From Sphingomonas sp. LC-1 (GTDB lineage: Bacteria; Pseudomonadota; Alphaproteobacteria; Sphingomonadales; Sphingomonadaceae), in contig NZ_JANZXB010000011.1 of assembly GCF_025371035.1 (NCBI RefSeq), positions 1 through 64,000 of the forward strand: 64,000 bases of DNA, written 5' to 3'. Shown here one piece after another: positions 13,048 to 57,272 of the stretch. The notes under the pieces are model-generated. The model was not told where the DNA came from, made no database searches, and worked only from the letters and a program-made list of their open reading frames with translations. A program made the position numbers and the translations under genes. Each line of letters opens with the position of its first letter. Within the stretch, counting starts at the first letter, position 1.

Positions 13048-13068
13048 ATGGTCAGGGAGACAGGATTC
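13048..13068 (+). other. Left attachment site (copy of tRNA-Pro 3' end)
   Basis: These 21 bases match 57252-57272, the 3' end of the tRNA-Pro gene including its CCA, at 20 of 21 positions and in the same orientation. The exact core is GGGAGACAGGATTC. A partial tRNA end at one edge and an intact tRNA plus integrase at the other is the standard footprint of tRNA-targeted integration. The flanks also form a short inverted repeat (GGTCAGG / CCTGACC, 13050-13074). Confidence 0.78.
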
Positions 13069-13147
13069 CTGACCTATTATTTCCGCGTACTAAGCCATTG
13101 ATTTTGCGTCGCCGCACAACCCGTCTGTCAGCGCATTGCACAGTGAA

Positions 13148-13166
13148 GGGTACAAGAAGGGGTACA
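13148..13166 (+). repeat. Two GGGTACA repeats, likely integrase arm sites
   Basis: GGGTACA occurs at 13148-13154 and 13160-13166, exactly 12 bases apart. The same word occurs three times at 12-base spacing beside the integrase (57170-57200). A related 13-mer, TTGATTTTGCGTC, is at 13098-13110, and its near copy lies inverted at 57225-57237. Placement just inside both island ends suggests arm-type binding sites of the integrase. Confidence 0.6.
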
Positions 13167-13257
13167 ACGACGCAAGGAAATCGAGCGGCGTTTGCTAATT
13201 CGACTGCAGCGCATTTCATAGGGTGATGGGATGCCTATAAATATCGCCTTAGGTGCA

Positions 13258-14826
13258 TCACACCGGGGATACGCGCGGCTGCACCATCACCTTCTCTAAT
13301 CCCGATACGCGGAGGTTGCGTCTTTGAGCCGGGTCCGTCTGGGGATAGTCGCTTCGCCGATGCAAACCGCGCGTTTCCTTCCGCTGGTCGGCGGACCGAT
13401 ATATCCACCGAGCGGTCAGCGTCATGGCGGCAGCTTCTCGCGCCCGCATGGCGTCTCGCCCACTAGTGCCCCGGGCTAGGCACCTCGCTGCATCTGACCA
13501 TAATGGATCAAGTGCCGCAAGCGACGCTGTAATAGCTTTTCCGGATCTATAAAGCGTCTTTTCCAAGGGCAGTATTTCGTCCCGAACCACCTGTTCCACC
13601 TGCGACGGCAGAAGCGCCTCGTGTCCGTTCCAGTTTTTCGTCGCACGGACTCCGACACCGCCAATGCCCTGTGCCGGACGCGCGGCGTGCGCCGATCCCA
13701 GTTCTCGCGCGAACCGAGCGGCGCCGGCACCGGCCCATTGTCCCGACGCGACGCACCATGCGATTGCAGCGCCTGCCCCGCTCATCTGCGCGCCGGTCAG
13801 TCGGGTCTTGTCCGCGACATCGCCGACCGCGAATAATCCGTGCACCCCCGTCGCCCCTTCATCGTCCACTTCCAGACCACCGGCAGCCCGCACCGTTCCT
13901 TCATACAACAGCCCCACCGGCCATCGCGCGTTGAGTGCTTCCACACCGTTGCGTTCGAAATAAGCAAAGAAATTGGGCATCATGCCACGGACCGAGGGCT
14001 CGCTGCCCGCCGGCACATCGATCTGCGCATAGACACGCTTTCCCGCCAGCATCGCCTGTCCCGCGGCGGGCACCGCCGCCCAACCGGGCTGCGGATCCAG
14101 CTTGACCCCGTCCTCATCGAAAATCTGACCGTAAAGATGGTACATGCCGCCTTTCGTGCAACTGCTACCCTCGGCAACGAAAGCATAATGGCCGGAAAAT
14201 TCCATGCCGACCGCACTGGCGCCAGCCTCCGCGGCGAACAGATAACCATCGCCCGTTGACCCGCCCGTGCCCATCGCCCCTGACCGAAAGGCGTTACCGC
14301 CGGTCGCCAGGATGACCGCCGCAGCACGGACACGCCATGACACGCCCGTCTTGCGAGGCACGCCGGCCGCCCCGGCAATCGCTCCGGTCGCGTCGGCCAG
14401 CAGTTCCAGCGCCGGGCTGTGATCTAGGATGTGTACGCCTGCCTTGCGCAAAAGACGGCGGAGGAACAGCATCGAATCCGGTCCGCGAAAGCCGCCCATC
14501 CGGTCGAACCGAAAGCCCCAGTCTTCCAGCGCCCGGTAGCAGCGATAGCTCTGCTCATAGACCTTCTCGCAAAAGGCCAGATCGTCCAGCCCATCGGCCT
14601 GGTCGTGTCGGATGCGGATGGTACGGGCGCGCTGCTCAGGATCGTCGGGCAGAAGGAAATAGCCGCCGCCGGTCGCCGCCGCTACGATACCCGCGGTGCC
14701 GATCCACCCTTTGTCGACGATCACCACCTCGGCTCCCGCCTTGCGCGCGGTCAACGCGGCCCAGGCACCGGCAAGACTGCCGCCGATCACCAGTACATCG
14801 GCGTCTCGGTGCAGCGGTTCGCTCAT
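13258..14826 (-). CDS. FAD-dependent oxidoreductase (fumarate reductase/AprA-like flavoprotein)
   Basis: A 522-residue flavoprotein of the succinate dehydrogenase/fumarate reductase superfamily. The N-terminal dinucleotide fold reads VIGGSLAGAWAALTARKAGAEVVIVDKG; AVILATGGNAF and GLFAVGDVADKT are further FAD-contact motifs. The ATG at 14826 overlaps the TGA of a two-cluster ferredoxin gene (ATGA). A flavoprotein plus 2[4Fe-4S] subunit recalls the AprAB architecture, although the operon lacks anything else of sulfate reduction. The natural substrate is unknown. It is last in a five-gene coupled operon with a TonB receptor, an amidohydrolase and an MFS transporter, so it probably oxidises or reduces an imported organic compound. 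Confidence 0.85.
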   Translation of the reverse strand: MSEPLHRDADVLVIGGSLAGAWAALTARKAGAEVVIVDKGWIGTAGIVAAATGGGYFLLPDDPEQRARTIRIRHDQADGLDDLAFCEKVYEQSYRCYRALEDWGFRFDRMGGFRGPDSMLFLRRLLRKAGVHILDHSPALELLADATGAIAGAAGVPRKTGVSWRVRAAAVILATGGNAFRSGAMGTGGSTGDGYLFAAEAGASAVGMEFSGHYAFVAEGSSCTKGGMYHLYGQIFDEDGVKLDPQPGWAAVPAAGQAMLAGKRVYAQIDVPAGSEPSVRGMMPNFFAYFERNGVEALNARWPVGLLYEGTVRAAGGLEVDDEGATGVHGLFAVGDVADKTRLTGAQMSGAGAAIAWCVASGQWAGAGAARFARELGSAHAARPAQGIGGVGVRATKNWNGHEALLPSQVEQVVRDEILPLEKTLYRSGKAITASLAALDPLWSDAARCLARGTSGRDAMRAREAAAMTLTARWIYRSADQRKETRGLHRRSDYPQTDPAQRRNLRVSGLEKVMVQPRVSPV

Positions 14827-57155: not shown

Positions 57156-57169
57156 TCCGCCACCCCAAG

Positions 57170-57200
57170 GGGTACAGCGAGGGGTACAGTCGTGGGTACA
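57170..57200 (+). repeat. Three GGGTACA repeats beside the integrase gene
   Basis: GGGTACA occurs at 57170-57176, 57182-57188 and 57194-57200, each 12 bases from the last. The same 7-mer at the same spacing lies at the other island end (13148, 13160). I read them as arm-type integrase-binding sites. Confidence 0.6.
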
Positions 57201-57251
57201 ACCGTCCCTGATCGCCGCCGTTAAGACGCGAAATCAAAGACTTGCAAGCGG

Positions 57252-57272
57252 ATGGTCGGGGAGACAGGATTC
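57252..57272 (+). other. Right attachment site inside tRNA-Pro
   Basis: The direct-repeat partner of 13048-13068 (20 of 21 bases). It covers the 3' acceptor and T-arm end of tRNA-Pro including the encoded CCA, so integration leaves the tRNA gene intact. Confidence 0.78.

What the first reader, a model, noticed from the sequence alone, without database searches (positions are those of the whole stretch)
13048..57272. A 44-kb integrated island bounded by tRNA-Pro and a displaced copy of its 3' end
The 21 bases at 57252-57272 (3' end of tRNA-Pro) recur at 13048-13068 with one mismatch and in the same orientation. A tyrosine integrase lies just inside the tRNA end reading inward, and a relaxase and a phage-defence system lie between. 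This defines an integrative, probably mobilizable element with exact borders. It explains why several unrelated operons and a second metallophosphoesterase are crowded here. The repeat and its positions are seen directly; the single event joining both ends is inferred.
Basis: partly seen in the sequence, partly recalled or inferred. Interest (0 to 1): 0.8.

Follow-up and report, generated by a model that had tools for sequence, protein, structure and literature searches.

The report
tRNA-Pro genomic island carrying phage defence
A 44-kb block of DNA appears to have been spliced into the end of a proline tRNA gene of a Sphingomonas-like bacterium by its own integrase, and relatives carry versions of the same element with different phage-defence genes, so it is a real but familiar kind of mobile island.

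Summary
Confirmed. The last 20 bases of tRNA-Pro(TGG) recur at 13049-13068 (19/20; 20/21 over the quoted 21), the only second copy in the window at up to 3 mismatches. Both ends carry family-conserved termini: about 110 bp at the left (13059-13169) and 100 bp at the right, each with 12-bp-spaced GGGTACA repeats that look like integrase arm sites. The left terminus was found in 20 of 295 genomes of the genus (23 copies); 16 of 23 keep at least 18 of the 20 tRNA bases. One relative (G283) has a 25.5-kb element whose flanks are contiguous in G021: an empty site, but in a relative; none was found for this window's own left flank. The integrase (664 aa) keeps tyrosine-recombinase residues; 10 of 11 named relatives sit beside tRNA-Pro. 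A MOBQ-type relaxase is present and no T4SS gene was seen, so 'mobilizable' is plausible, unshown. Refinements: the metallophosphoesterase outside the left border is a 91% copy of cargo; an 18.7-kb cargo block is shared by several islands; the left slot holds different defence systems (Hachiman here; Qat, type I or type III R-M elsewhere), also between two genomes assigned to one species. New member of a known kind.

The parts
13048..13068 (+). Left attachment repeat: displaced 3' end of tRNA-Pro (20 of 21)
13059..13169 (+). Conserved left terminus of the element, with two GGGTACA repeats at 13148 and 13160
   Evidence: HMM E 7e-34; the window is among the sequences the HMM was built from
13258..20032 (-). 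Slot cargo: FAD oxidoreductase, split MFS transporter, amidohydrolase, TonB receptor
   Evidence: four of its five called genes were tested against 17 island segments of 12 genomes and not matched
20486..22594 (-). HamB helicase of Hachiman
   Evidence: PADLOC E 1e-226
22594..23523 (-). HamA subunit of Hachiman
   Evidence: Pfam HamA E 4e-58, PADLOC E 1e-139
23945..26171 (+). NA37 nucleoid protein gene and a phrog_5023 gene, weakly like an anti-phage model (DS1_2, below its cut-off)
26657..45370 (.). Shared cargo block: AlkB-like, DinB, aminotransferase, aldo/keto reductases, MFS, metallophosphoesterase (41166-41993), AlkZ-like, serine hydrolase, alpha/beta hydrolase
   Evidence: 91.6% unbroken over 18.7 kb in G092, 90-92% in pieces in G138 and G277
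45660..46190 (-). Backbone gene, unknown function, next to the integrase in several relatives
46257..46892 (-). Backbone gene with invariant H150, P152, P161, H162, H164; weak MobQ match (E 1.6e-5, below cut-off)
47645..50650 (-). MobA/MobL-type relaxase with HxDxxNxHxH motif
52745..54631 (-). Subtilase (S8), backbone gene
55161..57155 (-). Tyrosine recombinase (integrase), 664 aa
   Evidence: phrog_1 E 1e-16; R458, H573, R576, H598, Y608 invariant
57154..57272 (+). Conserved right terminus with three GGGTACA repeats at 57170, 57182, 57194, and attachment repeat 57252-57272
   Evidence: HMM E 4e-36; the window is among the sequences the HMM was built from
57253..57329 (-). tRNA-Pro(TGG), integration target, kept whole
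9703..12598 (-). Outside the left border: metallophosphoesterase and ADH-domain gene, a copy of cargo that the islands of G277 and G138 carry inside
12926..13047 (+). Outside-left flank shared with G138, G277, G157 and YK209

Best explanation
The segment 13048-57272 is one integrated element of a sphingomonad family (called F1 here). Its 664-aa tyrosine recombinase joins the element's attachment site to the 3' end of tRNA-Pro(TGG). The element carries the tRNA 3' end at its right terminus, so the tRNA stays whole, and the host's own 3' end is displaced to the left border. The integrase probably binds the 12-bp-spaced GGGTACA repeats inside both ends and exchanges strands within about GACAGGA (13059-13065 / 57263-57269). 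The cargo is modular: a left slot that takes different phage-defence systems (Hachiman here), an 18.7-kb stress/repair/metabolic block, and a backbone of integrase, subtilase, small conserved proteins and, in some members, a MOBQ-type relaxase. Shown by comparison: borders, family, an occupied/empty pair in a relative, different defence systems in the slot. Inferred: arm-site binding, exchange position, excision, tandem stacking. Least supported: transfer by mobilization with a helper's conjugation machinery.
For: Repeat and tRNA. GGGTACA at both ends: 5 of the 8 window copies lie within 110 bp inside the two repeats (naive binomial 8e-13, interval chosen after seeing them). Left terminus in 20 of 295 genus genomes, 23 copies; inside conserved, outside mostly divergent; 16 of 23 keep at least 18 of 20 tRNA bases. 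One left and one right terminus in the window by HMM at E 0.01. Occupied G283 against empty G021. Right terminus beside the integrase in 11 of 11 named loci, tRNA-Pro adjacent in 10 of 11. Right end joined to left end in G310 and G061, two left ends on one strand in G276. Two genomes assigned to S. parapaucimobilis with a 96.6%-identical left flank but Qat against type I R-M in the slot. Relaxase motif invariant in 3 of 3 sequences.
Against: No empty site for this strain's own left flank: among 295 genomes the flank was found in G000, G138, G277 and G157 only, all occupied. Window 1-9702 has no match in the 100 kb of G277 fetched, so the wider left side is not syntenic there. 7 of 23 left ends do not keep the tRNA end at 18 of 20. 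Of seven other elements with both ends on one sequence (G277, G092, YK209, G276 inner, G283, G085, G016), only G276 has the large relaxase. oriT, directionality factor and excision are unseen. The cargo block (90-92% identical to G277) and the integrase region (68-74%) have different histories, so the island is a mosaic.
Confidence: 0.9

Rival explanations
1. A decayed, immobile tRNA island: once integrated, now fixed, its cargo block kept by the host for its own use.
For: The cargo block is as similar to G277 as the chromosomal flank (90-92% against 85-90%). The MFS gene is split. The attachment repeat differs by one base. G260 and G304 look like deletion derivatives; the integrase is in two frames in G092, cut short in G085 and G156 and unmatched in G016 and G318.
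Against: Here the integrase is full length with the invariant residues and both termini are present; the integrase region is 87% alike in G276 and 85% in G025, next to partly different cargo.
Confidence: 0.35
2. A composite of two or more tandem elements at the same tRNA, so that the 44 kb is not one event.
For: Stacked ends occur in relatives (G276, G310, G061; G157 with a second family). Cargo-like genes lie outside the left border here and in G277.
Against: Only one left and one right terminus in the window and no internal repeat. G277, G092 and YK209 have the same order of left terminus, slot, cargo block and backbone within one pair of termini.
Confidence: 0.1
3. A prophage or phage satellite rather than a mobilizable island.
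For: The integrase, the subtilase and one further gene (24960-26171) match PHROG families.
Against: No capsid, portal, terminase or tail family among the 39 called island genes scanned with Pfam; a relaxase is present.
Confidence: 0.04

Closest known systems
Integrative and mobilizable elements (IMEs; review PMC5704250, passages seen)
   Same: Own integrase, relaxase without T4SS genes
   Different: oriT and transfer not shown; relaxase in only some members. The 2017 review says that none of the IMEs then described in Proteobacteria was of the kind with its own relaxase and no T4SS
Modular defence hotspots in Pseudomonas genomic islands (PMC12629846, abstract and outline seen)
   Same: Islands with conserved places that hold varying defence genes
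   Different: Other hosts and islands; here the slot lies between one element terminus and a stress/repair cargo block
Hachiman (HamA/HamB)
   Same: Both subunits adjacent and strongly matched
   Different: Nothing seen that differs; here it is cargo of the island

Membership tests
tRNA-targeted genomic island | Direct repeat of the tRNA 3' end at both borders | tested here: met
tRNA-targeted genomic island | Tyrosine integrase next to the tRNA | tested here: met
   assignment of the catalytic residues is recalled
tRNA-targeted genomic island | Empty site in relatives | tested here: met
   for a relative's element (G283 against G021); not found for this strain's own flank
IME | Encodes its own integration/excision | tested here: met
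   integrase gene; excision itself not tested
IME | Relaxase | tested here: met
IME | No T4SS of its own | tested here: met
   none among the 39 called island genes scanned with Pfam
IME | oriT | not tested
   no oriT search was made
IME | Mobilized by a conjugative helper | not testable with these tools
   needs mating assays
ICE | Own conjugation machinery | tested here: not met
   no T4SS family
Hachiman | Adjacent HamA and HamB | tested here: met

The most novel reading that the evidence does not exclude
F1 is a defence-shuttling element family of sphingomonads in which a fixed slot, bounded by the conserved left terminus and the end of the AlkB-like gene, is repeatedly refilled with different anti-phage systems by recombination between elements stacked at one tRNA-Pro, and whose mobilization uses a small backbone protein with an H...PxH-type histidine motif (46257-46892) rather than only the patchily present large relaxase.
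Probability: 0.2. Interest if true: 0.65.

Novelty: new member of a known kind. Interest (0 to 1): 0.45.

Why it matters
It gives exact borders, conserved ends and a natural empty site for an island family in Sphingomonas and relatives that my few paper searches did not turn up, and it points to one place on the island where phage-defence systems differ between otherwise similar copies. That is a defined starting point for finding defence genes: read whatever lies in the slot of each copy.

Tried and rejected
Smaller element or better internal repeat: none found. An empty site for this window's own left flank: searched in 295 genus genomes, only occupied ones found. G158 and G315 looked empty from the right side, but G315 ends in a second family's right end and G158's neighbour looks, by eye, like the end of a TonB receptor gene of unknown status, so neither is counted. 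G260 looked near-empty but has about 58 bp of the right terminus next to AlkZ-like cargo. G028 as a second empty site: weaker homology, and a tRNA-Met gene lies between the left flank and tRNA-Pro, so it is only supporting. The small backbone protein 46257 as a relaxase: hhalign probability 0.5 of 100 against the large relaxase, no significant PDB match (one at E 1), no relative in the viral-contig scan; not claimed. Integrase against PDB sequences: nothing meaningful. Paper searches: one search listed one Burkholderia paper, none, one search listed 10 of 174 papers (titles and abstract starts only), none about sphingomonad tRNA-Pro islands; some searches were on neighbouring subjects. This is not proof that the family is unpublished.

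Full report
Observation. tRNA-Pro(TGG) lies at 57253-57329 on the - strand. Its 3' end with one flanking base (57252-57272) recurs at 13048-13068 with one mismatch. The 20-base form with up to 3 mismatches occurs twice in the window and never in 100 shuffles. The finding stands as written.

Both ends belong together. GGGTACA repeats spaced by 12 bp lie just inside each repeat: two at the left (13148, 13160) and three at the right (57170, 57182, 57194), in one orientation; there are 8 copies in the window against 2.07 expected, and none within 2 kb outward of either repeat. A stretch over the left border was searched in 295 genomes of the genus: 20 had a match at E 1e-8 or better, 24 places in all. 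One of the 24 (G157 contig C151) matches only the outside flank and core, which leaves 23 left ends. The alignment shows the inside conserved for about 110 bp. Outside sequences are mostly unrelated, with some shared groups: the window, G138, G277 and G157 C151; G276 inner and G025 C118; G157 C182 and G276 outer; G310 and G061; G085 and G241. 12 of 23 left ends have the exact 20 bases of the tRNA end, 16 of 23 at least 18; the other 7 have 12 to 16. HMMs of the two termini, built from family members including the window, find one left (13059-13169, E 7e-34) and one right end (57154-57273, E 4e-36) in the window.

Empty site. In G283 a complete 25.5-kb element lies between tRNA-Pro and its left repeat. 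The single-contig genome G021 has the same outer flanks on both sides (69% over 2.6 kb and 83% over 3.9 kb, with further matches beyond), with 41 bp between the left homology and the tRNA. G028 has the same flanks with weaker homology, but a tRNA-Met gene lies between. For the window's own flank (12926-13047) the only other carriers among the 295 genomes are G138, G277 and G157, all occupied, G157 by a different element end; YK209 has it too, also occupied.

Family. Elements with both ends on one sequence: the window (44.2 kb), G277 (48.3 kb), G092 (36.3 kb), YK209 (about 35.8 kb), G276 inner (31.9 kb; its left end is not a tRNA end), G283 (25.5 kb), G085 (13.0 kb; only 9% of the integrase matches), G016 (8.4 kb; no integrase match). 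A scan of public genomes gave 11 integrase loci, in Sphingomonas, Sphingobium and Novosphingobium; 10 of 11 lie beside tRNA-Pro, 9 TGG and 1 CGG, and all 11 have the right terminus. In a sample of 397 genomes of the family, 4 had an integrase match at E 1e-120. Contig lengths tie G138 to S. parapaucimobilis NBRC 15100, G025 to S. yabuuchiae NS355, G157 to S. sanguinis SB4, G150 to S. pseudosanguinis and G092 to Candidatus S. excrementigallinarum (my inference). In G310 and G061 a right end is joined directly to a left end, and G276 has two left ends 27 kb apart on one strand: consistent with tandem copies, though the far ends in G310 and G061 were not traced. A second family with GCTACGTA repeats shares the site.

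Integrase. 664 aa, no Pfam hit at 0.001, phrog_1 integrase E 1e-16. R458, H573, R576, H598 and Y608 are invariant in 8 and in 9 sequences (L177 was dropped because of a stop). Calling these the catalytic residues is from recall. The YK209 copy is annotated 'hypothetical protein'. Among 13 islands with a right terminus, the integrase is nearly whole in 8 (window, G277, G138, G157, G283, G276, G025, G294), in two frames in G092, only its start in G085 and G156, and unmatched in G016 and G318.

Exchange position. In left ends without a tRNA end (G276 inner, G025 C118, G092, G308, the second of G294), the shared outside sequence shrinks to roughly AGACAGGATT, and the other element end in G157 C151 agrees with the tRNA only as far as GACAGGA. 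This points to strand exchange in GACAGGA; it is inference, and decay of those ends is an alternative.

Cargo. The block 26657-45370 is 91.6% identical and unbroken in G092, 90-92% in pieces in G138 and G277, and mostly 91-92% (86% at its first 630 bp) in YK209. The integrase region of the same islands is only 68-74% alike, while G276 has 87% over 12.5 kb including the relaxase. The islands are mosaics. The metallophosphoesterase at 41166-41993 is 91% identical in DNA to the one at 9770-10510 outside the left border. In G138 and G277 the ADH-domain gene sits inside the island next to the metallophosphoesterase, and G277 also has a partial copy outside its left border. A leftover of an earlier element at the same tRNA is the simplest reading; no second terminus was found to prove it.

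Defence slot. Between the left terminus and the cargo block the islands differ. PADLOC gave Hachiman in the window and, on ten selected large proteins of other islands, QatA in YK209 (QatC and QatD are also annotated there), type I restriction and methylation subunits in G138 and G150, a type III restriction subunit and a PDC-S39 protein in G277, a type III methyltransferase in G276, and nothing for the one protein tested from G092. G283's one slot protein tested looks like an alginate lyase, and in G061 the block starts about 0.1 kb after the left terminus, so its slot is empty. I tested 1 to 3 proteins per other island, chosen for size. YK209 and G138, both assigned to S. parapaucimobilis, share the left flank and terminus at 96.6% and the block and backbone at 89-94.5%, but have a 6.3-kb against a 10.4-kb slot without a blastn match at E 1e-10.

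Mobility. The 1001-aa protein has a MobA/MobL domain and the histidine motif HxDxxNxHxH, invariant in 3 of 3 sequences (naming it the relaxase motif is recalled). It was found in the window, G276, L179 and L185, and not in the other 16 island segments tested, some of them partial. No T4SS family was among the 39 called island genes scanned. Transfer is therefore plausible, unproven. Verdict: a real integrated element with correctly called borders, a new member of a known kind.

Noticed in passing
G009 contig C26, loci L053 and L054: Full tRNA-Pro(TGG) and a 48-nt displaced 3' fragment 44 kb away, without an F1 integrase match: probably another island family at this tRNA.
   Followed up: partly
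G157 C151 and C182, G276 outer end, G315 C15: A second element family with GCTACGTA repeats ends at the same tRNA-Pro.
   Followed up: partly
L187 / NZ_CP155750.1: In S. parapaucimobilis YK209 this tRNA-Pro locus and its island lie on an 853-kb replicon labelled plasmid, perhaps a chromid.
   Followed up: no
window 15200-16480: MFS transporter gene split into two frames; described only.
   Followed up: no
window 23945-26171: NA37 gene next to a phrog_5023 gene that weakly resembles an NCBIfam anti-phage model (51.8 bits, cut-off 315): a candidate defence pair.
   Followed up: no
L052 5178-13660: 8.4-kb element with both F1 ends, no integrase match, carrying a rhodopsin gene.
   Followed up: partly
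L181 9880-9903: In Sphingomonas sp. Leaf17 the F1 right end adjoins only a tRNA-Pro 3' fragment, no whole tRNA.
   Followed up: no
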